NCBI RefSeq assembly: GCF_936925435.1 | Contig: NZ_CAKZHQ010000002.1 | Location: forward strand, 248,001 to 312,000 | Reading direction: 5' to 3' | DNA: 64,000 bases | Origin: an uncultured Ramlibacter sp. | Lineage (GTDB): Bacteria > Pseudomonadota > Gammaproteobacteria > Burkholderiales > Burkholderiaceae_C | Part shown: piece by piece, positions 26,327 to 45,900 of the stretch | Layout: every line of letters begins with the position of its first letter | Numbering within the stretch: the first letter of the stretch is position 1 | Translations under genes and position numbers: made by a program | The notes under the pieces: generated by a model | Told to the model about the DNA's origin: nothing | Databases searched by the model: none | The model's input: the letters and a program-made list of their open reading frames with translations, nothing else

Positions 26327-26342
26327 GCCGGCTGCGGCTCAG
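26323..26342. terminator. Stem-loop spanning both convergent stop codons
   Basis: Perfect 8-bp stem CTGAGCCG-GCTG-CGGCTCAG covering the TGA stops of the LON-domain gene and the dehydratase gene. There is no T-run, so its strength as a terminator is uncertain. Confidence 0.45.
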
Positions 26343-28147
26343 CGCGGCGTGTACTCGGGCACCTGGCTGCGCAGCCAATCGCGCAACGCCGTACCAGCCG
26401 GCGCCGGGCCCGCCTCCTCCACCCAGCGCAGCACGGCATCGACATCGGGCTGCTGCGCCGCGGTCTTGGCAACGCGCAGCTTGGGGTGTGGCGTGGCCAC
26501 GCTGGTCTCGTCGTCGGCCAGCAACTCCTCGTACAACTTCTCGCCCGGGCGCAGGCCGCTGTAGCTGATGGGCACTTCCTGCTCGGTCTTGCCCGACAGG
26601 CGGATCAGCATGCGCGCCAGTTCGACGATCTTCACCGGCTCGCCCATGTCCAGCACGAAGATCTGGCCCGAGCGGCCCATCAGGCCGGCCTGCAGCACCA
26701 GTTGCGCGGCCTCGGGAATGGTCATGAAGTAGCGCACGATGTCCGGGTGCGTCACCGTCACCGGCCCGCCCCGCGCGATCTGCGCAGTGAACAGCGGCAC
26801 GACCGAACCGCTGGAACCCAGCACGTTGCCAAAGCGCACCGACACGTACTGGGTCTTGTCGAACAGCGCGGCCACGCCCTGCACCACCAGTTCGGCCAGG
26901 CGCTTGCTGGCGCCCATCACGTTGGTCGGGTTGACCGCCTTGTCGGTGGAGATCATGACGAAGCGGCGCACGCCGCATTCACCGGCCACGCGTGCCGCAT
27001 TGAGCGTGCCGACCACGTTGGTGCGCAGCGCCTCGACCTCGTTCAAGGTCTCCATCAGCGGCACATGCTTGTAGGCCGCGGCGTGGAGCACGACCGATGG
27101 GCGGTGCTTGCGGAAAATGGCCCGCAAGCGTTCCGGCTCGCGCACATTGGCCGTGTAGTAGACGCCCTGCATCTGCGGATGGGCCTCGCGCAGTTCCTGC
27201 TCGAGCTGGTAGATGCCGAACTCGGACATGTCGACGCAGACCAGGCGCATCACCCCCAGGCGCGCGATCTGGCGGCACAGCTCCGAGCCGATCGAGCCGC
27301 CCGCGCCGGTGACCAGCACGGTCTGGCCGGAGAACAGCTCGGCCAGACCGGCCACGTCCAGCTGCACCGGCGTGCGGCCCAGCAGGTCTTCCAGCTCGAT
27401 CTTGCGCGGGCCGACGCTATCGGTCTTGAGCCATTCGTCGGGCCGCGGCATGGTCAGCAAGGTGACGCCAGCGCCAGTGGCATTGAGCAGGGCCTCGCGC
27501 CGCTCCGACGAGCCGGGCGGGCTGGCGACCAGGGCGGTGCGCGCATCGACGTCGGCGCAGACTTCGGCCAGCGCAGCAATCGTGCCCAGCACGCGCACGT
27601 TCTGGATCGAACGGCCGGTCTCGGCGGCAATCGGCGAGACGATGCCCACCGGCTGCCATTGCTGCGAGCCTTTGAGGGCGCGCAGTGCATCGGCCGCGTC
27701 CTGCAATGAGCCAACGATCAGCAGGCGCCGGCCGGCCAGGGGCAGCAGCCTGCGCTCGGCCAGGGTGCGCCAGGCAGCCCGGGCGGCAGCCAGCAACACC
27801 AGCGCAATCAGCGGCTGCAGCAGCAGCACCGAACGTGGGAAGGCCGGCAGGCGCAGCATGAGCACGGCGGCAGCCGTCAACACGCCCCCCAGCATGATGC
27901 CGGTCGCCAGCTGGCGCAGCTCGGGCAGGCCGATGTAGCTCCAGACCTGCCGGTAGACACGACAGACCATCAGGGCCAGACCATAAGCCAGAAGGAACAC
28001 CGGGCTGGCCGACAAGGCCAGTGCCTCGAACTCGTCCGGGACATCCAGGTTGAAGCGCAGCCAGAACGCCGCAGCCCAGGCCAGCGCCACCAGTGCCATG
28101 TCGATCCCGAACAGGATCCATATGTTCCTAGGCAGGCGCACTGGCAT
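26339..28147 (-). CDS. Membrane-anchored nucleotide-sugar 4,6-dehydratase (CapD/PglF/EpsC family)
   Basis: Predicted to convert UDP-GlcNAc to UDP-4-keto-6-deoxy-GlcNAc, the first step to bacillosamine and legionaminic acid. The 602 residues hold four N-terminal membrane helices (about 8-120), a first Rossmann-like segment (RRLLIVGSLQDAADALRAL) and the catalytic extended SDR domain, with TGAGGSIGSELCRQ near 283-296 and MISTDKAVNPTNVMGASKR near 396-414, where the usual Tyr is replaced by Met as in this family. ATG 28147 (MPVRLPRNIWIL) is preferred over an upstream TTG. It overlaps the aminotransferase gene by 20 bp and is the last gene of the operon. Confidence 0.9.
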   Translation of the reverse strand: MPVRLPRNIWILFGIDMALVALAWAAAFWLRFNLDVPDEFEALALSASPVFLLAYGLALMVCRVYRQVWSYIGLPELRQLATGIMLGGVLTAAAVLMLRLPAFPRSVLLLQPLIALVLLAAARAAWRTLAERRLLPLAGRRLLIVGSLQDAADALRALKGSQQWQPVGIVSPIAAETGRSIQNVRVLGTIAALAEVCADVDARTALVASPPGSSERREALLNATGAGVTLLTMPRPDEWLKTDSVGPRKIELEDLLGRTPVQLDVAGLAELFSGQTVLVTGAGGSIGSELCRQIARLGVMRLVCVDMSEFGIYQLEQELREAHPQMQGVYYTANVREPERLRAIFRKHRPSVVLHAAAYKHVPLMETLNEVEALRTNVVGTLNAARVAGECGVRRFVMISTDKAVNPTNVMGASKRLAELVVQGVAALFDKTQYVSVRFGNVLGSSGSVVPLFTAQIARGGPVTVTHPDIVRYFMTIPEAAQLVLQAGLMGRSGQIFVLDMGEPVKIVELARMLIRLSGKTEQEVPISYSGLRPGEKLYEELLADDETSVATPHPKLRVAKTAAQQPDVDAVLRWVEEAGPAPAGTALRDWLRSQVPEYTPR

Positions 28148-29627
28148 TCTCAATCTGCGCCAGCGCGCGCCGCAATTCCTGGCTGACCCGATCGAGCTGG
28201 CTGTCGGTCAGGTTCGAGCCCGATGGCAGGCAGATGCCCGCTTCGAACAGTCCGGCCGACACATCCTGGTGCGGCGCATGTGGAAAGTACGGCGCGTCCT
28301 GGAACAGCGGCTGCAGGTGCATGGGCTTCCAGACCGGCCTGGCCTCGATTGAATGGCGCTCCAGCGACCTGAGAAGCCGGTCGCGCCGCGCACCGGCGTT
28401 GCTGCCCGCCAGGGTGAAACAGGTCAGCCAACGGGTGGAGCGGTAGCCCTCAGGCTCAGGCATCCATTGCAGCTGCGCGAGGTCGGCCAGTTCCCGCGTG
28501 TAGGTGGCAAAGACGCGGCGGCGCTGCGCCACCCGGTCGTCCAGCACCCGCAACTGGCCGCGGCCTATGCCTGCCAGCACGTTGCTCATGCGGTAGTTGA
28601 AGCCGACTTCGACATGCTCGTAATGGGGCGCCGGCTCGCGCGCCTGCGTGGCCAGCTTGCGGGCCCGGTCCATCAGGGCCTGGTCCTGTGCCACCAGCAT
28701 GCCGCCGCCGGAGGTGGTGATGATCTTGTTGCCGTTGAAGGAATAGATGCCGATGGCGCCGAAGCTGCCGCTGGGCCGTCCCTTGTAGAGCGCGCCCAGC
28801 GACTCGGCCGCGTCTTCCAGCACCGGCACGCCGTAGCGCTCGCACACCGGCAGCAGCGCGTCCATGTCCGCGCTCTGGCCGTAGAGGTTGACGATGAGCA
28901 CGCAACGCGGCAGGCGGTTCTCCTTCTGGGCCCAGGCCAGGGCGCGTTCCAGCGCCGCCGGCGACATGTTCCAGGTCTGCGGTTCCGAATCGATGAACAC
29001 AGGCTGCGCGCCGCAGTACAGGATGGGGTTGCAACTGCCGACGAAGGTCAGTGAGGAACAGAACACCGTGTCGCCCGGCTGCACGCCCAGCAGCAGCAGG
29101 GCCAGGTGGATGGCGGCGGTTCCGGAACTCACCGCGGCGCCGTGCCCCATGCCCACGTGGGCCGCCAGCTCGCGCTCGAAGCCGTCGACGTGCGGGCCCA
29201 GCGGCGCAATCCAGTTGGTCCTGAAGGCGTCTTCGACAAAGCCCAGTTCCTCCACACCCAGGTGCGGAGACGATAGATAGATGCGGCTGCCCAGGTCGCG
29301 CCGCGAAATCAGGTCAGCCACCTTGCCGGCGCCGTCGAGCACCGGCACATCGTCGATCTGGTGCTGCTCCATCAGCTTTTGCACGTCCTGCAGGCTGGCG
29401 GCCTGGCCGACCGACAGCGGCGGCCTGCCGCTGAGCCCGGAAATCTGCGCGTCCAGCGGCAAGCCGGCCAGGATGCCACGGCGCAGGTCGCCATCGGTCA
29501 GGGTCCGCAGCAGGCGCTGCGCCGCATCGACGACCAGCAGCACACCACGGCCGGTCTGGTCCAGGCGTTCCAGTGCCTGCGACAGGGTGGCCTGGGGCGT
29601 CAGCTGCAGTTGGTCAAGGTCACGCAT
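28128..29627 (-). CDS. CBS-domain-fused DegT/EpsN-type nucleotide-sugar aminotransferase
   Basis: Residues 1 to about 125 form a CBS pair (LLRTLTDGDLRRGILAGLPLD, IDDVPVLDGAGKVADLISRRDL). This type is usually found in front of sugar-1-phosphate nucleotidyltransferases such as PtmE. Residues about 130-499 are a PLP-dependent DegT/DnrJ/EryC1 aminotransferase, very like B. subtilis EpsN (IYLSSPHLGVEELGFVEDAF, WIAPLGPHVDGFE, EDAAESLGALYKG, PLP-lysine motif SFNGNKIITTSGGGML). It should add the 4-amino group to the dehydratase product. ATG 29627 overlaps the Rieske gene by 8 bp. The CBS fusion suggests nucleotide regulation and is unusual. Confidence 0.9.
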   Translation of the reverse strand: MRDLDQLQLTPQATLSQALERLDQTGRGVLLVVDAAQRLLRTLTDGDLRRGILAGLPLDAQISGLSGRPPLSVGQAASLQDVQKLMEQHQIDDVPVLDGAGKVADLISRRDLGSRIYLSSPHLGVEELGFVEDAFRTNWIAPLGPHVDGFERELAAHVGMGHGAAVSSGTAAIHLALLLLGVQPGDTVFCSSLTFVGSCNPILYCGAQPVFIDSEPQTWNMSPAALERALAWAQKENRLPRCVLIVNLYGQSADMDALLPVCERYGVPVLEDAAESLGALYKGRPSGSFGAIGIYSFNGNKIITTSGGGMLVAQDQALMDRARKLATQAREPAPHYEHVEVGFNYRMSNVLAGIGRGQLRVLDDRVAQRRRVFATYTRELADLAQLQWMPEPEGYRSTRWLTCFTLAGSNAGARRDRLLRSLERHSIEARPVWKPMHLQPLFQDAPYFPHAPHQDVSAGLFEAGICLPSGSNLTDSQLDRVSQELRRALAQIENASAPA

Positions 29628-30675
29628 GGGCAACTGACTGGGCAACTGACTGGGCAACTGACTGGGCTGCGGTCTGGGCGCGGTAGCTGGCGCGGAAGTG
29701 CTCGACCTTGGCTTCCGCGGCAGTCGGCCAGGGCAGCGCCTCGCTGGTCCAGGTGCCGGCAGGAACCAGGCGGCAGACCGCCGCATCCTCGGCAAACACC
29801 TGGCGGTTCATGGCCGCACTGGCATTGAACATGGTGGAGGCCACGCCGTCGGGCGCGCCAGGCTGCACCGCGGTCTGGTACAGGCGGCTGGTGAAGTGCG
29901 TGCTACCCGGCGCCGCCGCGGGAAAGAAGTTCTGCATCGAATACGACAGGCCAAAGGTGGACGACAGCATGCTGAAGGGAAAAAGGTAGATGCTCAGATA
30001 GCCCTGGTAAGCGCCCTGCGCGCCGAAAAAACGGCTGATGCTGGCCAGCCGGCGCGCGGTGGAACGCGACCCCAGGGGTGCGGACCACACGGAATTGATG
30101 CCATGGAAAGCGTTGTCGCCGTCCTGCAGGTCCAGCTTGCCCAGCGACTGCGGATGGACGAAGCCGATGTGGTCCGGTTCCAGCGCGTTTTCCACCGCCA
30201 CCTGCCAGTCGCACTCGTAGTGCGCGCGGTTGAAGTCATGCCGCCCTGCCAGCTGGAATGAAATATCTTCGAGCATGGGCGCCACGCCCCCGAGCTGCGC
30301 TTGCAGCGAAGCCGCGGGGTCGATCGCCACGAACAGGAAATCCGCGCACCAGGCTGTGGGCAACTCGCGCAGTTGCACGCCGCAGGCCAGCGCCGGTTCA
30401 GGGGCGCCGCCGGCAAGGCGGCCCGCCCGGTAGGTCCAGCCGTGGTACGGGCAGGTGGCCACGGCATTGCCGACATCGCCGCCAAAGATGCGCGCACCGC
30501 GGTGGCGGCACAGGTTGTCGAAGGCCAGGATGCGGCCGCCGTCGTGGTGCACCACCAGGTCCTCGCCAAGCCATTCAAATCGCAGATAGTCGCCCTCGGC
30601 CGGCAGTTCGCTGCGATGGCACACCGGATGCCAGAAACGGTCGCGAAGATGCCGTGTGGCGTCGAAGGTTTGCAT
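29620..30675 (-). CDS. Rieske non-heme iron oxygenase-like protein
   Basis: A 351-residue protein with an N-terminal Rieske 2Fe-2S domain (ligands Cys56, His58 in CRHRGARIFGGD and Cys75, His78 in CPYHGW) and a C-terminal catalytic domain with a mononuclear iron motif (NALEPDHIGFVHP, His169 and His174). This is the architecture of ring-hydroxylating and related monooxygenase alpha subunits. No reductase or ferredoxin gene is nearby. In this operon it may hydroxylate the sugar or its acyl group; animal CMP-sialate hydroxylase is also a Rieske protein, but of different architecture. The C-terminus ends in three AQSV repeats encoded by a 12-bp tandem repeat. Confidence 0.87.
   Translation of the reverse strand: MQTFDATRHLRDRFWHPVCHRSELPAEGDYLRFEWLGEDLVVHHDGGRILAFDNLCRHRGARIFGGDVGNAVATCPYHGWTYRAGRLAGGAPEPALACGVQLRELPTAWCADFLFVAIDPAASLQAQLGGVAPMLEDISFQLAGRHDFNRAHYECDWQVAVENALEPDHIGFVHPQSLGKLDLQDGDNAFHGINSVWSAPLGSRSTARRLASISRFFGAQGAYQGYLSIYLFPFSMLSSTFGLSYSMQNFFPAAAPGSTHFTSRLYQTAVQPGAPDGVASTMFNASAAMNRQVFAEDAAVCRLVPAGTWTSEALPWPTAAEAKVEHFRASYRAQTAAQSVAQSVAQSVAHA
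29628..29663 (-). repeat. 12-bp tandem repeat, three units, at the end of the Rieske gene
   Basis: GGGCAACTGACT is repeated perfectly three times (29628-29639, 29640-29651, 29652-29663) and followed by a decayed fourth unit. It encodes AQSV repeats at the Rieske C-terminus and lies directly upstream of the aminotransferase ATG (29627), so it also forms that gene's leader. Confidence 0.9.
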
Positions 30676-30680
30676 GGGGC

Positions 30681-31304
30681 TCAGATGCGCTTGGCCGGCG
30701 TGGTGTAGACGCTGGTGTCTGGCGCCAGGCTGCGCACCACGGTCGCACCCGCGCCAACTCGGGCACGTTCGCCGATTTTGACCCGCGGCAACACGCGCGC
30801 ACCGGAACCAAAAAACGCATCCTCGCCCACCTGTACATAACCGGTCAGGTCCACATGGGCGCTGAGATTCGAATAGTCTCCCAGCACCACGTCATGGCCG
30901 ATGCTGCACATCAGGTTGATGGTGACGAAGTCACCGATCCTGGCATCGGCCGAGACCACCGAGCGCGGGCAGACAACGACCCCCACGCCCAGCTTGGCGG
31001 TGAAATGCACCAGGGCGCTGCTGTGCACAAAGGAAGCGAACAGGTCGTGGTGGGCGGCGAGCTCACCGACCACCTTCCGCTTGGCTGCCGGGTCTCCGAT
31101 CACCAGCAGCAGCTGGTCATCCGCCACCGGCTGGAATGCCGAGGGTTTGCCCAGCCAGGCCACACCGTAGGCATCCATGCCGGCATCAGCCTCCTGGGCC
31201 ACATAGCCGCGCACGGTCGAAGCACCGCCCTGCGCATCGCTGCGGATCCAGCCGATCACTTCGCGGGCGAAAGCCCCGCCACCAACCAGTACCCAGCTTG
31301 TCAT
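30681..31304 (-). CDS. NeuD/PglD/EpsM-family sugar N-acyltransferase
   Basis: A 207-residue hexapeptide-repeat acyltransferase. The N-terminal Rossmann-like part (WVLVGGGAFAREVIGWI) binds the nucleotide sugar. The left-handed beta-helix follows, with the catalytic His in SIGHDVVLGDYS. PglD and EpsM acetylate the 4-amino group of UDP-bacillosamine precursors; here the donor could instead be an acyl-ACP from the neighbouring ACP module (inference). ATG 31304 has an AAAGG ribosome-binding site. It lies five bases before the Rieske gene. Confidence 0.9.
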   Translation of the reverse strand: MTSWVLVGGGAFAREVIGWIRSDAQGGASTVRGYVAQEADAGMDAYGVAWLGKPSAFQPVADDQLLLVIGDPAAKRKVVGELAAHHDLFASFVHSSALVHFTAKLGVGVVVCPRSVVSADARIGDFVTINLMCSIGHDVVLGDYSNLSAHVDLTGYVQVGEDAFFGSGARVLPRVKIGERARVGAGATVVRSLAPDTSVYTTPAKRI

Positions 31305-31324
31305 GGTCTGCCTTTCGGTTCTTT

Positions 31325-32104
31325 CTATTGCGCGCAATAGCCGCCGTCGACCACCATGGCGGTTCCGGTGATCCAGCGCGCCTGGGGTGACAGCAGGAAC
31401 AGGACAGCGGCGGCGATGTCTTCCACTTCGCCGAAGCCCAGGGGATGGCGCCGCTCGTACGCCGCCATCGCGTCGCCGGGCATGCCGCCGGCCAGGCGTT
31501 CATGCATGGCCGTCTTCACGGCTGCCGCCGCCACTGAATTCACGCGCACCTTGCGCGGCGCGAGTTCGCAGGCCAGCGAGCGCACCAGGCCGTCCAGCGC
31601 CGCCTTGCTCGCGCAGTAGGCGCTCATGCCCACCTGCCCGCGCAAGGCCGCGACCGAGGACATCATGACCAGCGAGCCGCCGTCGACCAGCACCGAACGC
31701 GACGCCGCCGCGCGGGCAATGCCGAACGCGGCCTTGAGCGACGGCCCCAGCAGCGCGTCGATGTGCTGGTCCTTGGTCATCGCGATCGGCCTGATCGCTT
31801 CCTGGCCGGCGGCGTGGAAGACGCCGGCAAGGGGCGCGCCTTGCGCCTGCACCAGTTTCTTGATCCAGTCGGCCACGCTGTCGGCGTCCTTCAACTCGGC
31901 CACGATGGCCTGGTGGCCATCGCCCGCGAGCGACGCCAGCGTCTGCTGCAAGCGCTCTTCGTTGCGTCCCGAAACGACCACACGGGCGCCATGGCCGGCC
32001 AGCGCCGCTGCGGTGGCCCTGCCGATGCCCGATGAAGCCCCGGTGACCAGGAAAATCTGGCCGGCGAAGGCATCCGCACGGAACAAGCTGACTGTGTCAC
32101 TCAC
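31325..32104 (-). CDS. SDR-family oxidoreductase (3-oxoacyl-ACP reductase-like)
   Basis: A 259-residue classical short-chain dehydrogenase: cofactor motif TGASSGIG (21-28), catalytic Ser149/150, Tyr163 and Lys167 (SAYCASKAAL), C-terminal WITGTAMVVDGGY. FabG-like members reduce 3-oxoacyl-ACP to 3-hydroxyacyl-ACP. Together with the two KAS III-like enzymes and the ACP it probably makes a hydroxyacyl group for the glycan, as proposed for VioR/VioS in Pseudomonas syringae. The start is GTG 32104, inside the TGA of the preceding KAS gene (GTGA overlap). Confidence 0.87.
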   Translation of the reverse strand: MSDTVSLFRADAFAGQIFLVTGASSGIGRATAAALAGHGARVVVSGRNEERLQQTLASLAGDGHQAIVAELKDADSVADWIKKLVQAQGAPLAGVFHAAGQEAIRPIAMTKDQHIDALLGPSLKAAFGIARAAASRSVLVDGGSLVMMSSVAALRGQVGMSAYCASKAALDGLVRSLACELAPRKVRVNSVAAAAVKTAMHERLAGGMPGDAMAAYERRHPLGFGEVEDIAAAVLFLLSPQARWITGTAMVVDGGYCAQ

Positions 32105-33162
32105 GGGGTGTACTCCACGAACGCCAGAGGCACATCCGGCGCCAGGTCGACCAGGGCGCCGCCCCAGGAGAAGCCCACGCCAAAGCCCAGGGCGGCCAGC
32201 CGCAAGGTCTGCGCGCGCCCGGCCGGCTGGCTGGTGCAAAGCAGCAGCGGAATCGAAGCGCAACTGGTGTTGCCGAAACTGTCGATGTTCGAAGGTGCCT
32301 GCTGGGGGGCCAGGCCGCATTTTTTGGCCAGGTGCTTGAGCATGAAGGAATTGGCCTGGTGCAGGGCCACAAGGTCCCAGCCGGTGCGCGCCTCGCCGCT
32401 GGCTTCTTCCAGGGCGACCACCAGGGCCGGCACGGTGCGCAGCGTGAAGTTGAAGATCTCGGCGCCATCCATGAACAGGCAGGCTGGATCACGGTCGGCC
32501 AGCCGGGGATCGGCCTGCACCTGGGTCTGGCGGAAACCGCCCTGCGGGACGATGAGATGGCGCTCGCCGGCGCCATCGCTGCCCAGCACGAAGAAGGACT
32601 TGTTGCCGGCGCCTTCGGCCTGCGCTTCGATCGCCGTCATGGTGCCGGCATCGCCGAACAGCATCGCCGTGGCGCGGTCGGCGGGGTCGACGATCCTGGA
32701 GACCGTGTCACCGACCGCCAGCAGCACCCGGCGGGCAGCGCCGCTTTGCACCATGGTCATGCCCAGCCACAGCGCATAGGGATAGGCGGAACAGCCCAGG
32801 TTGATGTCCAGAGCGATGATGCCGCTGCGCAGGCCCAGCCGTGTGCCCAATGCCGACGCGGTGGCCGGCAAGCGGTAATCGGGTGTCTGTGAGACGAAGA
32901 TCAGGGCATCGACCGAGCCGGCCTGCCACTCCAGGCGCTGCAGCAGTTGTGCCCCGGCCTGCTGGCACAGGTCCGATGTGGTGACCCCCGGGCCGGCCCA
33001 GCGCCGCGCGTTGACGCCAATCATCTTGGTGACGTCGTCGACGGCCTTCTGGCCGAACTTCTTCACAAAACCGGTGTTGTCGATCACCTGTGCCGGCACA
33101 CATGCCGCCACACCCGCGATGCGCGCGCCAGCCAACACCGCTCGCTGGCCGGCCGGGGTCAT
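32101..33162 (-). CDS. KAS III (FabH)-like 3-oxoacyl-ACP synthase, second copy
   Basis: A 353-residue thiolase-fold condensing enzyme with the full KAS III triad: Cys124 in LGCSAYPYA, His268 in ALHQANSFML and Asn298 in SFGNTSCAS. It should condense an acyl-CoA with malonyl-ACP. It differs clearly from the other KAS III-like protein of this operon, so the two probably have different substrates or act as partners. It lies 45 bp after the ACP gene and is coupled to the SDR gene. Confidence 0.88.
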   Translation of the reverse strand: MTPAGQRAVLAGARIAGVAACVPAQVIDNTGFVKKFGQKAVDDVTKMIGVNARRWAGPGVTTSDLCQQAGAQLLQRLEWQAGSVDALIFVSQTPDYRLPATASALGTRLGLRSGIIALDINLGCSAYPYALWLGMTMVQSGAARRVLLAVGDTVSRIVDPADRATAMLFGDAGTMTAIEAQAEGAGNKSFFVLGSDGAGERHLIVPQGGFRQTQVQADPRLADRDPACLFMDGAEIFNFTLRTVPALVVALEEASGEARTGWDLVALHQANSFMLKHLAKKCGLAPQQAPSNIDSFGNTSCASIPLLLCTSQPAGRAQTLRLAALGFGVGFSWGGALVDLAPDVPLAFVEYTP

Positions 33163-33207
33163 GGCCGGCGCTCCGGATGGCTGGCGGGACCTGCCATGGC
33201 GCGGCCT

Positions 33208-33429
33208 TCAGCCCTTGCGCGAGGCAATCAGCGCTTCCACGTCGGCCAGCGTGCCGCACGCGCCAAGCGCCTGCCCGTCAAGGGTGATGTTGAAGCAGTC
33301 GTCCACCAGCGCGATGATGGAAACAATGGCCAGCGAATCCCAACCGGCGGCCACCAGGTCGAAGTCAGGGCCGACCTGCGCCACGTCGACCTCAAAAATG
33401 TCGGCCACGCCATCGTAAAAATCGCTCAT
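33208..33429 (-). CDS. Dedicated acyl carrier protein
   Basis: A 73-residue ACP with the phosphopantetheine serine Ser32 in GWDSLAIVS. It is acidic, four-helix in pattern, and divergent from the housekeeping AcpP encoded at 63314-63553 (GADSLDTVE). Its position between two KAS III-like genes points to a pathway-specific acyl shuttle. An AcpS that could activate it is encoded in this window at 50423-50824. Confidence 0.9.
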   Translation of the reverse strand: MSDFYDGVADIFEVDVAQVGPDFDLVAAGWDSLAIVSIIALVDDCFNITLDGQALGACGTLADVEALIASRKG

Positions 33430-33450
33430 AAATTCCTTCTGGGGCGGCCT

Positions 33451-38499: not shown

Positions 38500-39239
38500 A
38501 GGTTCACCTCGAACTCGTCTTGCAGTTCGGTCTTGACCTTGAGCGCGGAAAAATCGGCGTCGTGGAAGGCGCACCCTATCGCCACCGCCGAAGCGCCGGC
38601 GCGAAAGGCCTGGCGCACGTCGTCGGCGTTGCGGATGCCGCCGGAATAGACCACCGGCACGTCGCAGGAGCCGGCCACCTGCTCGATCAGCTCCAGGTCC
38701 GGGCCGCTCAGGCAGCCGTCGCGGTCGATGCTGGTGACCAGGATTTCGCCGGCTTGCGGCGCCATGCGCGGGACGAAGTCGCTGACCAGGGTGTGGGTGG
38801 CCTCGCGGCCGCCCAGGATCTGGCATTCGTAGCGGCCCGCACCAATCTTCTTGGCGTCGATCGACAGCACGCAGAACTGCCGGCCGAACAGGCGCGCCAT
38901 TTCGCCCAGCAGTTCGGGCTTGTGGTGCGCCTGCGTGTTGATGCCGACCTTCTCCACGCCCGACAGCACCAGAGTCTGCACGTCGTCGATGCCCGAGACA
39001 CCGCCGGTCACGGAAAAGGGAATGAACAGCGAGCTGGCAACCTGCTGGACCACGCCGGCATCGAAGCGGCGGCGGTACAGCGACGCCACCAGGTCGATGT
39101 AGAAGACCTCGTCGAACGCGGCACCGAAAGCCCGGTGGCCGACAGCGCCGGCGGGGCCGATCTTGCGCAGGCCCTCGTAGTTCTTGCCCTTGACGCAGTT
39201 GTCGCCCTTGACGTCGATGCGGGCGCAGATTCTTTTCAT
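38496..39239 (-). CDS. hisF: HisF-like cyclase subunit (glycan amidination)
   Basis: A 247-residue (beta-alpha)8 protein with the HisF N-terminus KRICARIDVKGDNCVKGKNYEG, the catalytic-type Asp in YIDLVAS and SIDRDGCLSGPDLELIEQV, and SVTGGVSGIDDVQ. The first Lys-Gly region is changed compared with true HisF, as in other glycan-linked copies. ATG 39239 overlaps neuA by four bases. It probably channels ammonia to the WbpG-like enzyme. Confidence 0.9.
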   Translation of the reverse strand: MKRICARIDVKGDNCVKGKNYEGLRKIGPAGAVGHRAFGAAFDEVFYIDLVASLYRRRFDAGVVQQVASSLFIPFSVTGGVSGIDDVQTLVLSGVEKVGINTQAHHKPELLGEMARLFGRQFCVLSIDAKKIGAGRYECQILGGREATHTLVSDFVPRMAPQAGEILVTSIDRDGCLSGPDLELIEQVAGSCDVPVVYSGGIRNADDVRQAFRAGASAVAIGCAFHDADFSALKVKTELQDEFEVNL

Positions 39240-39964
39240 GCCAGGGCCTCCTGCGCGGCCTGGCGCCGGTACAGCCATGCAGCCCATTCGAAATCCAGCA
39301 GGTCGTCGATGTCGGCCGAGCGCTCGCGCGGCATGGTCACGCCCCGCACCGGCACGCTCCACAGCCCGTGAACGGCGGCGCGGGCCAGCGCGGCCCGGCG
39401 CCAGCAGTAGATGCTGCCGTTCATGGCGTAAACCGGCGGCAAAGCCTGGCGGCTCACACCGCCGGCTTGCGCGTACAGCCGCGCCAGGCCGTCGGGCGCC
39501 AGTTCAACGAGGTTGAAGGCCGGGTGAAAGCCGCTGTCGTAGACCGACACTGCCAGATCCACGCCATCCATCGCATCCAGGCAGCGTTCGATGTCGCCGC
39601 GGTTGCGCAGCGGCGAGGTGGGCTGGAGGTCGACGACGGTGGCGATCCGCAGGCCCTGGGCTTCCAGGTGGGCCACCAGGTGCTCCACGGCCGGCAGCTT
39701 GCCGACGCTGTCTGTCGCCAGTTCAGCCGGACGCAGATAGGGGACGGTCGCGCCCGCGTTACGGGCGGCTTGCGCGATGGCATCGTCATCGGTTGACACG
39801 TACACCTGGTCGATGCGCGTGCTGGCCAGGGCATGGCCGATGGTGTGGGCGATGAGGGGAGCCCCGTCCGCACCGGGAAAAGGCCGGATGTTCTTGCCCG
39901 GCAGTCCCTTGCTTCCGCCCCTTGCGCAAACCGTCGCGATGGTGATGCCGCGGGGTGATTCCAT
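39236..39964 (-). CDS. neuA: CMP-nonulosonate cytidylyltransferase (NeuA/LegF type)
   Basis: Activates the nonulosonic acid as its CMP-sugar. The 242 residues carry the signature ARGGSKGLPGKNIRPF (14-29), VSTDDDAIAQAA, and DLQPTSPLRNRGDIERCL. There is no extra esterase domain. The ATG at 39964 lies eight bases after the upstream gene. It completes the dehydratase-aminotransferase-acyltransferase-NeuC-NeuB-NeuA set. Confidence 0.93.
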   Translation of the reverse strand: MESPRGITIATVCARGGSKGLPGKNIRPFPGADGAPLIAHTIGHALASTRIDQVYVSTDDDAIAQAARNAGATVPYLRPAELATDSVGKLPAVEHLVAHLEAQGLRIATVVDLQPTSPLRNRGDIERCLDAMDGVDLAVSVYDSGFHPAFNLVELAPDGLARLYAQAGGVSRQALPPVYAMNGSIYCWRRAALARAAVHGLWSVPVRGVTMPRERSADIDDLLDFEWAAWLYRRQAAQEALA

Positions 39965-39972
39965 GGGGCCAA

Positions 39973-41205
39973 TTATAGGTTGGCGAGCTCTCGCAACACC
40001 TGGATCACACGCGGTGTTGAGGGCTCCACGGCTTGCTGTGAAACAGCCGCCGTGGCCAGCGCGCGGTCCATCGCCGGACCCAGTGTCGCCAGCGTCGCGG
40101 CCGTCGCAATGCCCATGGCGGAGAACGGCGCGCCGTCGTCGAACATGGACCCGCCGACCTGAACGACCGGCTTGCCGGCCAGGTGAGCCTGCAGACCAAC
40201 GGTCGATACCGTGATACAGACGGCGTCGCTGGCATGGAGCAAGGGCTCCAGCGCCATGTCCTGACCGGCCAGCACCGCCTGGCTGGAACCGAGGGCGAAT
40301 TCCTCGCGCTGGCTGGGATGGGGACGCACGGCGACGCGCACAGACGGCCGCTGCTGCGCCCAGGCCAGCAAGGCTGCCAAGACCTCATGCGGCAGCTGCT
40401 CGTTGCCCGCCTGCTGGCGGACCGGATGGTGCAGGGGCTCAGGACTGGGCGCATACAGCACAAGCTTTTCACCGCCCGGGGCCAGCGCCTGCCTGACGCC
40501 GGCAGCCGCCTGGCGCACCTGCGGATCCTGCAACCGGTCGAAGCCCGGATTGCCGGTCACGACGATGTCGGCCGGCGCGCGCCCTTCGTCGATGAACATC
40601 TGGCGCACCTGTTCATTGAGAACGCAGACCCGGTCGGCATAGCCTGGCCGGCCGATCCAGACCTTCTCGTCGACCGCGAACAGGTCGACCAGGCAGGCGG
40701 CGGGAATCCCCAGTTCGCGTGCCGCCTCTACGGCCGCACGCTCCGCGCGTGGCGAATTGGTGGTCACCAGCAGCGACGGCGCCAGCGTGCGAAGGATGCG
40801 GCGCATCGTCGGCAAGGGATGGAAGCACTGGCGGCCGTACTGCGCGTAGGCCTGGGCTGCGCCTTCCTTGCCCAGGCTCGCTTGCAGGTCGGCGTAGCTC
40901 AAACCCAGGTAGGCCGTGCTCTGCGCCGCATGGACGGGCGAGGTCGGCAGCTGCGCCGCCAGCAGCGCCCCGTGCTGCAAAGCCTCGCCATCGTCCGGCC
41001 CGGCGAAGTCGGCGAAGCCCACGGTCTCCAGGCCGGCCTGGCGGCTGACCGCTTCGGCCGTCGTCAGCGCGAGCATCAGGGGGCGTGCCAGGCCCAGTTC
41101 GCGCACCCGCTGGGCAACGGGCAGCAGCATGGCGATATGCCCGCCGCCGTAGGCCACAAACAACCAGGTCGGCAAGCCGCCGCTGTCCTTCTCAATGCTG
41201 ACCAT
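39973..41205 (-). CDS. GT-B-fold protein, probable polysaccharide glycosyltransferase
   Basis: A 410-residue protein with a glycogen phosphorylase-like (GT-B) layout: an N-terminal nucleotide-binding-like half (LFVAYGGGHIAMLLPVAQRV) and a C-terminal half with VLYAPSPEPLHHP, VRPHPSQREEF and a donor-binding-like VSTVGLQAHLAGKPVVQVGG. Resemblance is to UDP-sugar epimerase/glycosyltransferase and CDP-glycerol transferase families, but I cannot name an activity. ATG 41205 overlaps the asparagine synthase-like gene by 14 bp. It is a candidate to transfer the CMP-nonulosonate or another operon sugar. Confidence 0.75.
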   Translation of the reverse strand: MVSIEKDSGGLPTWLFVAYGGGHIAMLLPVAQRVRELGLARPLMLALTTAEAVSRQAGLETVGFADFAGPDDGEALQHGALLAAQLPTSPVHAAQSTAYLGLSYADLQASLGKEGAAQAYAQYGRQCFHPLPTMRRILRTLAPSLLVTTNSPRAERAAVEAARELGIPAACLVDLFAVDEKVWIGRPGYADRVCVLNEQVRQMFIDEGRAPADIVVTGNPGFDRLQDPQVRQAAAGVRQALAPGGEKLVLYAPSPEPLHHPVRQQAGNEQLPHEVLAALLAWAQQRPSVRVAVRPHPSQREEFALGSSQAVLAGQDMALEPLLHASDAVCITVSTVGLQAHLAGKPVVQVGGSMFDDGAPFSAMGIATAATLATLGPAMDRALATAAVSQQAVEPSTPRVIQVLRELANL

Positions 41206-42985
41206 GGTTCGCCCACAGCGCCAGCGCCGCCAGCGCGCGCAACTCGCGCGTGAAGTTGGCGCTGCCGTCGCGGTGGCGCGACAGCATGGCGTCGATCTCG
41301 CTGCGCTGGAACAGCCGGCCCAGCAGCGCGCTGTCCCGCAGCAGCGCAGCCAGCCAGGCATGGCTCTCGCCGCGGAACCACTCGCCCACCGGCACGGTGA
41401 ACATCTGCTTCTTGCGGTAGGCCAGGTCAGCACCGATCAGCGGCGCCGCCGCCTTCTTGTACCAGTGCTTCTTGTCGCCGGCGGCCGACAGCTTGGTGGC
41501 GCCGCGCGAACGGAAGGCGAACTCCATCATCCGCCAGTCCAGGAAGGGGGTGCGGGCCTCGATCGACACCGCCATGCCCATGCGGTCGGGCTTGACCAGG
41601 TTGTTGCCGGACAAAAGCAGCTGCATGTCCAGGTATAGGGCCTGGTTGACGCGGTCCAAGTGCTGGGCCTCGTCGAACCAGGGCCGGGCCGCCACGCCGA
41701 AGCTGTCAATGCCGGCCAGACTGGCCGCCACTTCAGGCCGGTACAGCGCCTGCTTGGCCGCGGGCGAGAACAGCGAGATCGAGTCGAAGTAGGCGCGCTG
41801 GAAGGCCGGCGCGTCCAGTGTCTGTGCATCGGGCCGGGCGAAGAAGGCGGCGTACTTGTCGTAGCCGGCAAACAATTCGTCGCCGCCGTCGCCGGTGAGC
41901 ACGACCTTGACGTGCTTGGCCGCCAGCTCGCTCACACGCAGCGTCGGCATGAAGGAGGCGTCGCCGTGCGGCTGGTCCAGGTGCCACAGCACCTGGGGCC
42001 AGCGGTCCAGCATGTTGAGTTCGGCGATCTCGCTGCTGTGGTCGCAGCCGAAGCGGCGCGCGGCCTCGGCGGCAAAGGCCGACTCGTTGTAGCGCGGGTC
42101 GGCAAAGCCGATGCAGAAGGTCTTGACCGGCCGGTCCACGTGACGGGCCATCAGGCCGACGATGGTGCTGGAATCGACGCCGCCCGACAGGAAGGCGCCC
42201 CAGGGCACATCGGCGCGCAAGCGGATGCGGGTGGCGTCGTCCAGGATGGCCATGAATTCGGCGGCCCAGTCGCCGTAGTCATGGTCGCACTCGCGCTGGT
42301 CCGCCAGGCTCCACCAGCGCTGGGTCTGCACGCCGGAGCGGCCGAACTTCATCCACGTTCCGGGCATGACGTGGCGGATGCCGCGCCAGATGGTCCAGGG
42401 CACGGGAATGTAATTGAAGCTCAGGTAGTGATGGATTGCTTCGATATCGATGGCATCTGAAGCAGACAATTCGGGGGCTGCAGCCGTAATTGCCTTGATT
42501 TCCGAGCCGAACAGCAGGCGCTGGCCGTCGTCGGCCACATACAGCGGCTTGACGCCGATGCGGTCGCGCACCAGGTACAGAGCGTCCTCGCGCGCGTCGT
42601 CGATGGCAATGGCAAACATGCCATTGAGCTTGGAGAGGAAGGCGATGCCCTCGCGCTCGTACAGCCGCAGCAGCACCTCGGTGTCGGAGGCGGTGTCCAG
42701 CCGCACGCCCTGGCTGCGCAGTTCCTGCGCCAGCTCCACATAGTTGAATATCTCGCCGTTCTGCACGATTGCGATGCTGCCGTCGTCCGACACGAAAGGC
42801 TGGTGACCACCGCCGATGTCGATGATGGACAGGCGCCGGTTGCCCACGGCCACGCCGCGCGCCGGCTGGTGGTGCACGCCCTCGTCGTCGGGGCCGCGGT
42901 GCACCAGTGTCCGGGCCATCGCGGCCAGGCGGTCCGCCGGCAGCGCGCGCCGGCCGCGGTCCCAGTAGCCGAAGATGCCGCACAT
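41192..42985 (-). CDS. asnB: Asparagine synthase-like glutamine amidotransferase
   Basis: A 597-residue AsnB-family enzyme with an N-terminal class II glutaminase (MCGIFGYWD; Cys2 is the nucleophile after Met removal, so ATG 42985 is chosen over a start two codons upstream), HRGPDDEGVHH, and a C-terminal synthase domain (FLSGGVDSSTIVGLMARH). Such genes in polysaccharide clusters (WbpS-like) amidate sugar carboxylates. A GCTAT mini-repeat lies inside the gene in antisense orientation (42438-42494), read as ITAAAPELSASDAIDIEA, in a surface loop between the two domains. A GC-rich repeat copy fills the gap to the sugar transferase gene. Confidence 0.9.
   Translation of the reverse strand: MCGIFGYWDRGRRALPADRLAAMARTLVHRGPDDEGVHHQPARGVAVGNRRLSIIDIGGGHQPFVSDDGSIAIVQNGEIFNYVELAQELRSQGVRLDTASDTEVLLRLYEREGIAFLSKLNGMFAIAIDDAREDALYLVRDRIGVKPLYVADDGQRLLFGSEIKAITAAAPELSASDAIDIEAIHHYLSFNYIPVPWTIWRGIRHVMPGTWMKFGRSGVQTQRWWSLADQRECDHDYGDWAAEFMAILDDATRIRLRADVPWGAFLSGGVDSSTIVGLMARHVDRPVKTFCIGFADPRYNESAFAAEAARRFGCDHSSEIAELNMLDRWPQVLWHLDQPHGDASFMPTLRVSELAAKHVKVVLTGDGGDELFAGYDKYAAFFARPDAQTLDAPAFQRAYFDSISLFSPAAKQALYRPEVAASLAGIDSFGVAARPWFDEAQHLDRVNQALYLDMQLLLSGNNLVKPDRMGMAVSIEARTPFLDWRMMEFAFRSRGATKLSAAGDKKHWYKKAAAPLIGADLAYRKKQMFTVPVGEWFRGESHAWLAALLRDSALLGRLFQRSEIDAMLSRHRDGSANFTRELRALAALALWANHGQH
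42438..42494 (+). repeat. GCTAT mini-repeat, copy 3 (inside asnB, antisense)
   Basis: GCTTC-N7-ATGGC (42438-42454), 18 bases, GGGGGCT (42473-42479), then GTAATTGCC. Arms are degenerate, but spacing equals the other copies. The segment is AT-richer than the rest of asnB. Confidence 0.7.
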
Positions 42986-43000
42986 GCTCAATGCCCGCCC

Positions 43001-43062
43001 GGCCGCCCGTAGGGCATTGACGGCCCCCTCGGGGGGCAGGGAACGAAGTGACCGTGGGGGCT
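43001..43062 (-). repeat. GC-rich palindromic repeat, copy C (between the sugar transferase and asnB)
   Basis: On the minus strand: GAGCCCCCACGG, CCTGCCCCCCGAGGGGGC, then CTACGGGCGGCC. It begins two bases after the sugar transferase TGA and ends 15 bases before the asnB ATG, inside an operon. It may therefore affect read-through or mRNA stability. Confidence 0.85.
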
Positions 43063-43064
43063 CA

Positions 43065-43619
43065 TCAATTGCTCCCGTTTCCAGAAATGCGCGCCAGCGT
43101 CCACCAGATGATCTTCAGGTCCAGCCACACGCTGACTTCGCGGGTGTATTGCAGGTCCAGGTCCAGCCGCTGTTGCGGTGTGGCTTCGGAGCGCAGCAAG
43201 GCCTGGGCCAGGCCGGTGATGCCGGGGCGCACGCTGCAGCGCTGGGCCCAGTCGGCATCGCTGTAGAGCGAACGCTGGGCCTGCACGTCGGGCCGCGGCC
43301 CCACCAGGCTCATGTCGCCACGCAGCACGTTCAGCAGCTGGGGCAGTTCGTCGATGCTGGTGCGGCGCACGAAACGACCGACCCTTGTGATGCGCGGGTC
43401 GTTGGCGCTGGTGGAATACGGCCCGATGGCCGCCGCGTCCTTGACCATGCTGCGGAACTTGTACATGCCAAACAGCTGGCCGCCGCGGCCGACCCGCTGC
43501 TGGCGAAACAGCACCGGCAAGCCACTCTCGGCGGCGATTGCCAGCGCCGCCCCCAGCATCAAGGGCGAGAGCAGAACCAGGGCCAGCGCCGCGACCAGCA
43601 TGTCCAGCAGCCGCTTCAT
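43065..43619 (-). CDS. Initiating sugar-1-phosphate transferase (PglC/EpsL type)
   Basis: A 184-residue monotopic phosphoglycosyl transferase: one N-terminal membrane helix (MLVAALALVLLSPLMLGAA), FRQQRVGRGGQLFGMYKFRSM, RRTSIDELPQLLNVLRGDMSLVGPRP and GITGLAQ. This short form lacks the multi-helix part of WcaJ/WbaP enzymes. PglC-type members move diacetylbacillosamine phosphate to undecaprenyl phosphate, and the operon's dehydratase, aminotransferase and acyltransferase could make exactly that donor. It overlaps the HpcH/HpaI-like gene by four bases. Confidence 0.93.
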   Translation of the reverse strand: MKRLLDMLVAALALVLLSPLMLGAALAIAAESGLPVLFRQQRVGRGGQLFGMYKFRSMVKDAAAIGPYSTSANDPRITRVGRFVRRTSIDELPQLLNVLRGDMSLVGPRPDVQAQRSLYSDADWAQRCSVRPGITGLAQALLRSEATPQQRLDLDLQYTREVSVWLDLKIIWWTLARISGNGSN

Positions 43620-44422: not shown

Positions 44423-44433
44423 GGATGCCGAAA

Positions 44434-45900
44434 TTATCGCTGCAGGGCTTGGCGCAATTCGCTGCTGCCCAGCCAGCTGGCGGCCAGCACCAGCGCCGCC
44501 GCCAACACTGCGGCAGCCAGGCCGCCGGCCAGCCCCAGCGCCGCGGCGCCCAGCCAGGCGCTGGCGCCGGCGACCAGCAACAAGCCGGCAAATCCGATCA
44601 CCATCGCGCGCCAGGGCATCCAGCGCAGCGCGTCGCGGCCCATGGCAAGCACCACGACCACAGCGACGCCGGCAAACACCGCATTGAGCAGGCGCATCAG
44701 GCCGGCGCCGTCGCGCACGCCCCAGGAGGCGGCCAGCAGCAGGGTCAGCAAGCCCAGGCCATAGGCCGCCACGGCCATGCGCATGCGTGCCTGGGCGGCC
44801 AGCACGGTCAGGGCCACGGCGATCAGCGCCTGCGGCAGCAGGCCCCAGGCAGCAATGGCGCCCCACTGGGCTATGCGCTCCAGCGCCACTGCGTCCAACC
44901 GGCCCCAGCCAAACAGCAGCTGGCCCAGGGCCGGCGCGCCCAGCAGCAAGGCGGCAGCGGCGGCGCAGGCCAGGGTCCAGGCCAGGGCCAGGGCCAGCCG
45001 CACAGTGCGCCCGCCATCGCGCGGCGCCACGCCGCCCGAAAATGCCGCGGCGACGGCTGGAAAGGCCAGGGTGGCGACCAGCTGGATGGCCAGCAGCAGG
45101 GGCAGCTCCACCAGCTTCCAGGCGTAGTTGAAGGTCGCCAGCGCGCCCTCGCCGGCCTGCGAGGCGATCGAGCGGGCGGCAAACGGCAGGGCCAGGGGCA
45201 GGCCTGCACTGAGCGCCGCCCACAGCCAGACCGGCGGCGCCGGCAAGGCCAGGGGCTGGTGGCTGGCAGCGGACGGGGCGGCGGCGGCCCCGGCCTGGCG
45301 GCGCCACAGCCAGGCCAGCCGCAGGCCCATGGCAGCCAGCAAGCCCAGGCCCAGCCAGGTGATCGCCTGCTCCCCGCTGGCCCAGCCCACGCCCGCGATG
45401 GCCGTGATCAGGACGGTGTTGACCACCAGGTTGGCGCCGTACAGGCCGGTGAAGTCACGCTGGTGCTGCAGCCGGGTGGCCCACAGGGCCGCCAACATGG
45501 CCGCCGGCAAGGCCAGGGCGCTCCAGGCCAGGCCCTGGCTGGCCTGCGGCCGCAAGAGCGCGGGCAGGCCCCCGGCCAGCCAGTCCACCGCCGGTGCGCG
45601 CAGCAGCAGCAAGGCCAGCGCCAGCAGCAGGCTGCCGGCCAATAGCCAGACCGTCACCCTGCGCTGGCTGGCACGCACCTGGGCGGCGCCCTGCCCGGCC
45701 CAGGCCGGCAGCAGCACATAGGCCAGGGCGCCGCTGGCCAGAACGCCTGCCAGCCAGTCCGGCAGGGTCAGCATCAGCACCGCCACGTCGGCCAGGCCGG
45801 AGGCGCCGAAGGCCGCGGCCTGGGCCGATTCGCGCACCAGCCCCAACAGCCGGCTGGCCAGCAGCAACGCCAGGGAAACGGCACCCGCTTTGAGAAACAT
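44434..45900 (-). CDS. murJ: MVF-superfamily lipid flippase (MurJ-like)
   Basis: A 488-residue polytopic membrane protein with about 13-14 hydrophobic helices and the MurJ/MviN start pattern GAVSLALLLASRLLGLVRESAQAAAFGAS. Because it is the first gene of a glycan operon, export of the undecaprenyl-linked glycan is more likely than lipid II transport, but sequence alone does not separate these. ATG 45900 is chosen over an upstream TTG. A GATAAT -10-like box ends six bases before this ATG, so the mRNA may be leaderless. Confidence 0.85.
   Translation of the reverse strand: MFLKAGAVSLALLLASRLLGLVRESAQAAAFGASGLADVAVLMLTLPDWLAGVLASGALAYVLLPAWAGQGAAQVRASQRRVTVWLLAGSLLLALALLLLRAPAVDWLAGGLPALLRPQASQGLAWSALALPAAMLAALWATRLQHQRDFTGLYGANLVVNTVLITAIAGVGWASGEQAITWLGLGLLAAMGLRLAWLWRRQAGAAAAPSAASHQPLALPAPPVWLWAALSAGLPLALPFAARSIASQAGEGALATFNYAWKLVELPLLLAIQLVATLAFPAVAAAFSGGVAPRDGGRTVRLALALAWTLACAAAAALLLGAPALGQLLFGWGRLDAVALERIAQWGAIAAWGLLPQALIAVALTVLAAQARMRMAVAAYGLGLLTLLLAASWGVRDGAGLMRLLNAVFAGVAVVVVLAMGRDALRWMPWRAMVIGFAGLLLVAGASAWLGAAALGLAGGLAAAVLAAALVLAASWLGSSELRQALQR

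What the first reader, a model, noticed from the sequence alone, without database searches (positions are those of the whole stretch)
26339..45900. A 19-gene operon predicted to build an acyl-decorated, amidinated legionaminic-acid-like sugar
Seen: nearly continuous leftward genes with many 4-bp overlaps, encoding dehydratase, aminotransferase, NeuD-type acyltransferase, NeuC, NeuB, NeuA, two KAS III-like enzymes, ACP, SDR, Rieske oxygenase, WbpG/HisH/HisF, AsnB-like, GT-B, PglC-like transferase, HpcH/HpaI-like protein and an MVF flippase. Known: the first six families make CMP-legionaminic acid or a relative in Campylobacter/Legionella; the WbpG set makes acetamidino groups. Inferred: the acyl module and oxygenase create a new side chain. 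I know of no described pathway combining all of these.
Basis: partly seen in the sequence, partly recalled or inferred. Interest (0 to 1): 0.85.

Follow-up and report, generated by a model that had tools for sequence, protein, structure and literature searches.

The report
Sugar operon with borrowed hydroxyacyl cassette
A bacterium carries a sialic-acid-like sugar pathway in which a single acyl-adding gene appears to have been replaced by a six-gene set predicted to build and oxidise a small hydroxylated side chain; the parts are of known kinds, but what the oxygenase does is unknown.

Summary
The 19-gene leftward operon is real (26339-45900; 10 of 18 junctions overlap). It encodes a legionaminic-acid-type nonulosonic acid (NulO) pathway, the WbpG/HisH/HisF acetamidino set, a phosphoglycosyltransferase and a MurJ-like flippase.

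Two new facts. (1) It is a genus-wide NulO locus between accD and lysS: NeuB matches in 31 of 31 related stretches, with conserved ends and a variable centre. None of the 31 shows the KAS, ACP or Rieske genes (one stretch is cut short). (2) KASIII-ACP-KASIII-ketoreductase-NeuD-Rieske is a cassette, in this order in 30 of 59 named loci, usually near a sugar aminotransferase (40 of 59). In the window it sits where the closest relative keeps a lone NeuD.

Similar genes without Rieske (wfpC-G, Flavobacterium psychrophilum) are assigned to an N-(3,5-dihydroxyhexanoyl) group in a solved O-antigen. Most likely the window makes a CMP-Leg5-amidino sugar with such a chain, further oxidised by the Rieske enzyme, on the 7-amino group.

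The conserved Rieske step is the real unknown. No chemistry was tested.

The parts
26339..28147 (-). PglF/WbpM-type membrane UDP-GlcNAc 4,6-dehydratase (602 aa)
   Evidence: Polysacc_synt_2 376 bits; matched in 30 of 31 genus loci, median 77% identity
28128..29627 (-). LegC-family aminotransferase with N-terminal CBS module (499 aa)
   Evidence: TIGR04181 LegC 359 bits, below its cut-off of 420; CBS and DegT domains; best solved relatives 1o61/4ztc
29620..30675 (-). Rieske non-heme iron oxygenase (351 aa), last gene of the acyl cassette
   Evidence: PF00355/PF00848; ligand residues conserved in the family; model pLDDT 91, best fold CntA
30681..31304 (-). NeuD/PglD/VioB-type sugar N-acyltransferase (207 aa)
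   Evidence: TIGR03570 168.6 bits, above the cut-off of 160.8; best solved relatives perosamine N-acetyltransferase, VioB, bacillosamine N-acetyltransferase
31325..32104 (-). SDR, FabG-like 3-ketoacyl-ACP reductase (259 aa)
   Evidence: adh_short_C2; Ser and Tyr in 56 of 56, Lys in 53 of 56 (Arg in 3) loci
32101..33162 (-). KASIII-like ketosynthase 2 (353 aa)
   Evidence: Cys-His-Asn triad; closest solved entry 4efi, 414 bits
33208..33429 (-). acyl carrier protein (73 aa)
   Evidence: PP-binding 33 bits; DSL motif visible in the translation (motif recalled)
33451..34464 (-). KASIII-like ketosynthase 1 (337 aa), first gene of the acyl cassette
   Evidence: Cys-His-Asn triad; closest solved entry 3gwa, 472 bits
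34458..35663 (-). NeuC/LegG-type hydrolysing 2-epimerase (401 aa)
   Evidence: TIGR03568 394 bits, above cut-off; best solved relative is the N,N'-diacetylbacillosamine 2-epimerase
35660..36679 (-). NeuB/LegI-type nonulosonic acid synthase (339 aa)
   Evidence: PF03102 281 bits; TIGR03569 363 bits, below cut-off 399.65
36676..37890 (-). WbpG/WbuX N-acetyl sugar amidotransferase (404 aa)
   Evidence: TIGR03573 309 bits, above cut-off; 83% identical in the closest relative locus
37891..38499 (-). HisH-like glutaminase of the acetamidino set (202 aa)
   Evidence: TIGR01855 138.8 bits, above cut-off
38496..39239 (-). HisF-like subunit of the acetamidino set (247 aa)
   Evidence: PF00977; HisF 180 and WbuZ 179 bits, both below equivalog cut-offs
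39236..39964 (-). CMP-nonulosonic acid cytidylyltransferase (242 aa)
   Evidence: CTP_transf_3 61 bits; TIGR03584 PseF 120 bits, below cut-off 205.7
39973..41205 (-). putative GT-B glycosyltransferase (410 aa)
   Evidence: weak Epimerase_2, Capsule_synth, BFO_1060-type glycosyltransferase and surface-polysaccharide similarity, all under cut-off
41192..42985 (-). AsnB-like amidotransferase (597 aa)
   Evidence: Asn_synthase and GATase_7; in 31 of 31 genus loci, median 78%
43065..43619 (-). PglC-like phosphoglycosyltransferase (184 aa)
   Evidence: Bac_transf 223 bits
43616..44422 (-). HpcH/HpaI-like aldolase (268 aa), role unknown
   Evidence: PF03328; R68, E120 and D146 invariant in 18 sequences; model resembles class II aldolases and acyl-CoA lyases
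44434..45900 (-). MurJ/MVF-family flippase (488 aa)
   Evidence: PF03023 58.6 bits; the genome has a separate, much stronger MurJ
29620..34464 (-). six-gene acyl cassette KAS1-ACP-KAS2-SDR-NeuD-Rieske
   Evidence: same order in 30 of 59 named loci; no KAS1, KAS2, ACP or Rieske match in 31 genus stretches, one of which (L153) is cut off at NeuC

Best explanation
The operon makes a CMP-activated legionaminic-type sugar and a carrier-lipid-linked glycan that holds it. PglF and LegC make UDP-4-amino-4,6-dideoxy-GlcNAc. In the closest relative a lone NeuD-type transferase would acylate this 4-amino group. Here NeuD belongs to an imported cassette: KAS1 and KAS2 extend an acetyl starter twice on the dedicated ACP, the SDR reduces each keto group to give 3,5-dihydroxyhexanoyl-ACP, and NeuD transfers that chain to the 4-amino group. 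The Rieske enzyme adds oxygen to the chain, before or after transfer. NeuC hydrolyses and epimerises the sugar and NeuB condenses it with PEP, so the chain ends on N7 of the NulO; WbpG/HisH/HisF turn the 5-acetamido into an acetamidino group; the cytidylyltransferase gives the CMP sugar. The PglC-like enzyme and a glycosyltransferase build a short glycan that the MVF flippase exports. Shown by sequence: gene families, order, catalytic residues, cassette conservation, locus conservation. Inferred: every substrate and product, the chain length, the site of oxidation and the order of steps.
For: Families. Legionaminic rather than sialic type. Cassette conserved as a unit: at least 2 KAS in 52 of 59 loci, SDR in 56, NeuD in 54, identical order in 30; catalytic residues kept. 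The cassette often lies near a DegT aminotransferase (40 of 59), sometimes a PglF-type dehydratase (10), i.e. enzymes that make a 4-amino sugar acceptor. Closest relative locus L148 has GTB-NeuA-HisF-HisH-WbpG-NeuB-NeuC-NeuD-LegC-PglF without the cassette, so the cassette occupies the NeuD slot. Window NeuD has median identity 43% (31-55%) to 54 cassette NeuDs against 36% (29-38%) to NeuD matches in 18 genus loci. Chain: F. psychrophilum wfp genes and an NMR-based 3,5-dihydroxyhexanoyl O-antigen (PMC6519341 passages).
Against: The NeuD tree was uninformative (2 genus rows, long branches) and the identity ranges above overlap. Several NulO enzymes score below equivalog cut-offs. No reductase or ferredoxin for the Rieske enzyme is in the operon. 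The PGT may use the same acylated UDP sugar, so the chain may sit on the first sugar as well or instead.
Confidence: 0.55

Rival explanations
1. The cassette product is 3-hydroxybutanoyl; one KAS condenses acetyl-CoA with malonyl-ACP, the second KAS is accessory, and the Rieske enzyme hydroxylates that C4 chain or the sugar.
For: P. syringae vioS/acp/vioR/vioB with one KAS accompany N-(3-hydroxy-1-oxobutyl)viosamine, and the vioR mutant lacks modified viosamine (PMC3927599); Leg with Ac or 3-hydroxybutanoyl at N7 is listed in A. baumannii (PMC6586298).
Against: Two KASIII genes in 52 of 59 loci and conserved triads; the two-KAS set is the one tied to a C6 chain.
Confidence: 0.2
2. The acylated sugar is the initiating UDP-QuiNAc4N-acyl used by the PglC-like transferase, and the NulO is made from the same pool only partly or carries another N7 group.
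For: In F. psychrophilum the PglC homologue WfpB is assigned to transferring Qui2NAc4NR (PMC6519341); cassette loci L031, L035, L047 and L078 run PGT-KAS-ACP-KAS-SDR-NeuD-Rieske-DegT-PglF without a NeuB match.
Against: The window has one NeuD for the whole operon; PGT, AsnB and HpcH match in 31 of 31 genus loci that lack the cassette, so PGT does not depend on it.
Confidence: 0.2
3. The operon is a chimera that no longer works or is silent.
For: Rieske gene found in 1 of 60 genus genomes; no sigma-70-like promoter match in the region (not decisive).
Against: All 19 frames open, catalytic residues present, tight junctions.
Confidence: 0.05

Closest known systems
Flavobacterium psychrophilum O-polysaccharide wfp genes with pglE/pglF (PMC6519341, passages read)
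   Same: PglC-like transferase, two different ketoacyl-ACP synthases, ACP, ketoreductase and PglD-type acyltransferase assigned to an N-acyl group on a UDP-4-amino sugar; 3,5-dihydroxyhexanoyl by NMR
   Different: Terms Rieske and oxygenase do not occur in its main text; acceptor stays a hexose (Qui2NAc4N), no NulO or acetamidino set in the passages read
Pseudomonas syringae viosamine island vioA/vioB/vioS/vioR/acp (PMC3927599, sections 2.1 and 2.3 and passages read)
   Same: KASIII, ACP, ketoreductase and NeuD-like transferase give a hydroxyacyl amide on a 4-amino sugar
   Different: One KASIII, no Rieske among its seven genes, dTDP-viosamine acceptor
Acinetobacter baumannii lga loci, Leg5Ac7R with R acetyl or 3-hydroxybutanoyl (PMC6586298, passages read)
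   Same: A change of acylation genes goes with a different N7 group of legionaminic acid
   Different: Locus genes listed as lgaABCHIFG; no dedicated ACP/KAS set or amidination named in the passages read
C. jejuni/C. coli Leg5Am7Ac flagellin glycans (review PMC3958885, passages read)
   Same: Legionaminic acid with an acetamidino group
   Different: N7 acetyl; no acyl cassette named in the passages; GDP-linked precursors (title of a reference seen)
Aeromonas polar flagellin glycosylation island group II (PMC7874193, passages read)
   Same: Acyl-chain genes (ACP, 3-oxoacyl-ACP reductase, ligase, luxE, luxC) between NulO genes
   Different: Pseudaminic type, different acyl genes; terms oxygenase and Rieske do not occur
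Shewanella oneidensis sfmABCDE flagellin modification (PMC3765264, passages read)
   Same: NeuB-domain protein and a 3-oxoacyl-ACP reductase in one operon; NulO with a further substituent
   Different: TPP enzyme, methyltransferase and ATP-grasp protein instead of KAS/ACP/Rieske
Carnitine monooxygenase CntA
   Same: Best sequence and fold match of the Rieske enzyme among solved structures; a Glu aligned at the position I read as bridging
   Different: About 20-23% identity, TM about 0.65; substrate class cannot be inferred

Membership tests
UDP-linked legionaminic acid pathway | PglF-type dehydratase, LegC aminotransferase, NeuD-type transferase, hydrolysing 2-epimerase, NeuB-type synthase and CMP transferase together | tested here: met
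   All six families present; epimerase closest to the diacetylbacillosamine type
UDP-linked legionaminic acid pathway | Equivalog-level identity of each enzyme | tested here: inconclusive
   Of these six, only NeuC and NeuD exceed an NCBIfam cut-off; LegC, NeuB, PseF-like and the dehydratase score below
UDP-linked legionaminic acid pathway | Product with D-glycero-D-galacto configuration | not testable with these tools
   Needs NMR
Acetamidino (WbpG/HisH/HisF) set | All three genes adjacent | tested here: met
   36676-39239; WbuX 309 and HisH 139 bits over cut-off, HisF below
Dihydroxyhexanoyl N-acyl cassette (wfpCDEFG kind) | Two KAS, ACP, ketoreductase and PglD-type transferase as neighbours | tested here: met
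   Window order KAS1-ACP-KAS2-SDR-NeuD against the paper's description, where order is implied by the gene letters
Dihydroxyhexanoyl N-acyl cassette (wfpCDEFG kind) | Sequence relationship to wfpC-G | not tested
   wfp sequences not held; not identified in any search
Rieske non-heme iron oxygenase, alpha subunit | CxH and CxxH cluster ligands and 2-His-1-carboxylate iron site | tested here: met
   C56, H58, C75, H78 in 57 of 59 (2 not covered); H169, H174, D297 in 59 of 59 loci
Rieske non-heme iron oxygenase, alpha subunit | Dedicated reductase or ferredoxin nearby | tested here: not met
   None among the 19 genes; electron donors may lie elsewhere, not searched

The most novel reading that the evidence does not exclude
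A conserved Rieske oxygenase family works on carrier- or sugar-bound hydroxyhexanoyl chains, giving an oxidised (e.g. trihydroxyhexanoyl) amide on bacterial glycans, and in this strain that group has been grafted onto an amidinated legionaminic acid, a sugar I did not meet in the papers seen here.
Probability: 0.35. Interest if true: 0.65.

Novelty: new variant of a known kind. Interest (0 to 1): 0.5.

Why it matters
If true, it shows a concrete route by which bacteria diversify sialic-acid-like surface sugars: because bacillosamine-type and legionaminic-type pathways share one 4-amino acceptor, a whole acyl cassette can replace a single acyltransferase gene. It also marks a Rieske oxygenase family, found with the cassette in most of 59 named loci (which were chosen by that family), whose reaction is unassigned and which makes a sharp mass prediction.

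Tried and rejected
NeuD tree to prove replacement: only two genus-locus NeuD rows were long enough, both on very long branches, so the tree shows nothing either way; I use pairwise identities instead. Order-level co-occurrence: Rieske in 1 of 399 genomes (the host), KAS2 in 5 of 399 (the host; the four others at 38-41%), and at most 5 first-look candidates a genome were scored, so this cannot say whether cassettes without Rieske exist. Viral contigs: 12 relatives at 21-34% identity; not pursued. Rfam and tRNA scans of the window: nothing. Promoter/terminator scan: 0 promoter-like and 9 terminator-like sites, no more than shuffled sequence gives. The HpcH/HpaI fold search gives only the general aldolase/lyase class; I considered a NulO-lyase or proofreading role but have no evidence. 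An idea that the whole operon was imported was dropped: its ends are genus-wide.

Literature: searches (flagellin glycosylation island with Rieske; legionaminic acid with Rieske; nonulosonic acid with oxygenase and acyl carrier protein) returned 0 papers. One search gave nothing used. Searches led to papers opened; PMC6519341 was opened by a DOI I recalled after a passage of PMC10609480. Also opened in passages without changing the reading: PMC12053666, PMC3628348, PMC3210612. Only the held PMC subset was searched.
Full report
What is there. Nineteen leftward genes fill 26339-45900. The flanks are housekeeping genes: trpF, trpB, trpA and accD-type genes and a YGGT gene on the left, lysS on the right.

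The locus is genus-wide. A strong match to the HpcH gene (E below 1e-90) occurs in 44 of 59 genomes examined, the host included (my count from its rows). In these 31, matches are present for NeuB, AsnB, PGT, HpcH and GTB in 31, PglF in 30, MVF in 30, LegC in 29, NeuA in 29, lysS in 28, NeuC in 27, NeuD in 18, and WbpG/HisH/HisF in 11 (the script counted an empty 32nd stretch, L169). The ends are similar (median 72-78% for HpcH, PGT, AsnB, LegC, PglF; 62% for MVF) while the centre is not (NeuB 43%, NeuC 36%, GT 45%). In L155 and L165 the NeuB match runs the other way, and in L155, L163, L166 and L168 LegC matches only at 33-37%. This looks like a variable NulO locus with conserved ends. KAS1, KAS2, ACP and Rieske match in 0 of 31 at E 1e-5; L153 is cut off at NeuC, so its slot was not seen. 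An SDR matches weakly (25-37%) in 11.

The closest locus. L148 has the window's own order (GTB-NeuA-HisF-HisH-WbpG-NeuB-NeuC-NeuD-LegC-PglF) with 54-83% identity from NeuA to NeuC, and a lone NeuD (31%) where the window has KAS1-ACP-KAS2-SDR-NeuD-Rieske. No other of 60 genus genomes has the Rieske gene at E below 1e-50; 5 of 399 family genomes do, the host included, and 1 of 399 order genomes at E below 1e-60, the host itself. In some searches at most five candidates a genome were scored.

The cassette elsewhere. A pattern-based scan of the named species genomes with a Rieske alignment gave 78 loci, a lower bound. I analysed the 59 from L022 to L080 and left out L081-L099, which match at 26-34% identity over parts of the protein; three of those kept (L076, L077, L079) also match at only 26-30%. 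At least two KAS are found in 52 of 59, SDR in 56, NeuD in 54, a recognisable ACP in 44, a DegT aminotransferase in 40, PGT in 11, PglF in 10; the window's exact order occurs in 30 and a second order, mostly in Pseudomonas, in 11. The loci were chosen by the Rieske gene, so this says nothing about cassettes without it, and some contigs are short (L074 shows the Rieske gene alone). Flagellin or FliD matches lie within reach in 12 of 59 and a TPR glycosyltransferase in 20 of 59. In Burkholderia glumae plasmid pBGF3 the cassette follows flagellin, fliD, fliT, a TPR protein and vioA.

NulO plus acyl genes is not unique. One of the 59 loci, L069 (Phenylobacterium), has NeuB nearby, and there PseI and PseG score above cut-off, so it is a pseudaminic context with another gene arrangement. 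Azospirillum brasilense has pseI with ACP, ligase, SDR and a KASIII beside flagellin. A. lipoferum plasmid AZO_p6 has a distant Rieske oxygenase (25% identity), an SDR, a KASIII and neuB within about 10 kb. These weaken any claim that the combination is unprecedented in genomes; I found none with the legionaminic plus acetamidino set, in the loci looked at.

What the chain is. In F. psychrophilum two ketoacyl-ACP synthases, an ACP, a reductase and a PglD homologue are assigned to a 3,5-dihydroxyhexanoyl group seen by NMR in the O-polysaccharide (PMC6519341, passages); that gene assignment is the authors' prediction. The P. syringae island with one KAS accompanies 3-hydroxybutanoyl, and a vioR mutant lost modified viosamine (PMC3927599). 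The window has two KAS with Cys-His-Asn triads (Cys in 56 of 57, His and Asn in 57 of 57 best matches for each), so I favour the C6 chain. That the chain ends on N7 follows from the established route (4-amino of the UDP sugar becomes N7 of the NulO; recalled pathway knowledge).

What the Rieske enzyme does. It is a real oxygenase by sequence: cluster ligands C56, H58, C75, H78 in 57 of 59 (2 not covered), iron ligands H169, H174, D297 in 59 of 59, and E166 as Glu in 54 and Asp in 5. Its best solved relative by sequence and fold is carnitine monooxygenase. E166 aligns with a Glu there; that this is the bridging residue is recalled. Its substrate is not known; oxidation of the acyl chain is inferred from its place at the end of the cassette. 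No redox partner is among the 19 genes.

Export. The genome has its own MurJ elsewhere (397 bits) besides the operon's weaker MVF protein, and a 550-aa protein with Wzy_C, Wzy_C_2 and PglL_A domains, a candidate O-oligosaccharyltransferase. Three flagellin matches exist. Where the glycan goes is not settled.

Against my reading. No product, no expression data, sub-threshold NulO models, no wfp sequences to compare, no informative NeuD tree. GC content shows no break between cassette genes (63-70%) and the rest (63-75%), so composition gives no sign of recent import.

Noticed in passing
window 28128-29627: LegC aminotransferase is fused to an N-terminal CBS module. The match extends over it at over 60% identity in 24 of 29 genus loci with a LegC match; the module alone had no match in the 59 cassette loci.
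   Followed up: partly
window 43616-44422: HpcH/HpaI-like aldolase conserved genus-wide beside the PGT and flippase; R68, E120 and D146 invariant in 18 aligned sequences. Its role in a glycan locus is unexplained.
   Followed up: partly
window 41192-42985: AsnB-like amidotransferase is genus-wide (31 of 31 loci, median 78%), and a distant AsnB lies in 3 of 59 cassette loci (L032, L047, L051); it may amidate a sugar carboxylate.
   Followed up: no
L195 17226-21059: B. glumae pBGF3 carries the cassette in its flagellin region. The KAS2 match there comes in two pieces and no gene is listed at it.
   Followed up: no
L198 2176-11928: Azospirillum lipoferum plasmid AZO_p6: distant Rieske oxygenase, SDR, KASIII and neuB within about 10 kb, a loose parallel.
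   Followed up: partly
not in window: A review gives 291.1 Da for a Burkholderia pseudomallei flagellin glycan (PMC3958885); viosamine plus dihydroxyhexanoyl plus one oxygen is 291.132. The review suggests other groups, and whether that species has the cassette was not tested; it may be coincidence.
   Followed up: no
window 32101-34464: Both KAS proteins have close solved relatives, 3gwa (472 bits) and 4efi (414 bits), named only as 3-oxoacyl-ACP synthases; they could be used to read the chain-length pocket.
   Followed up: no
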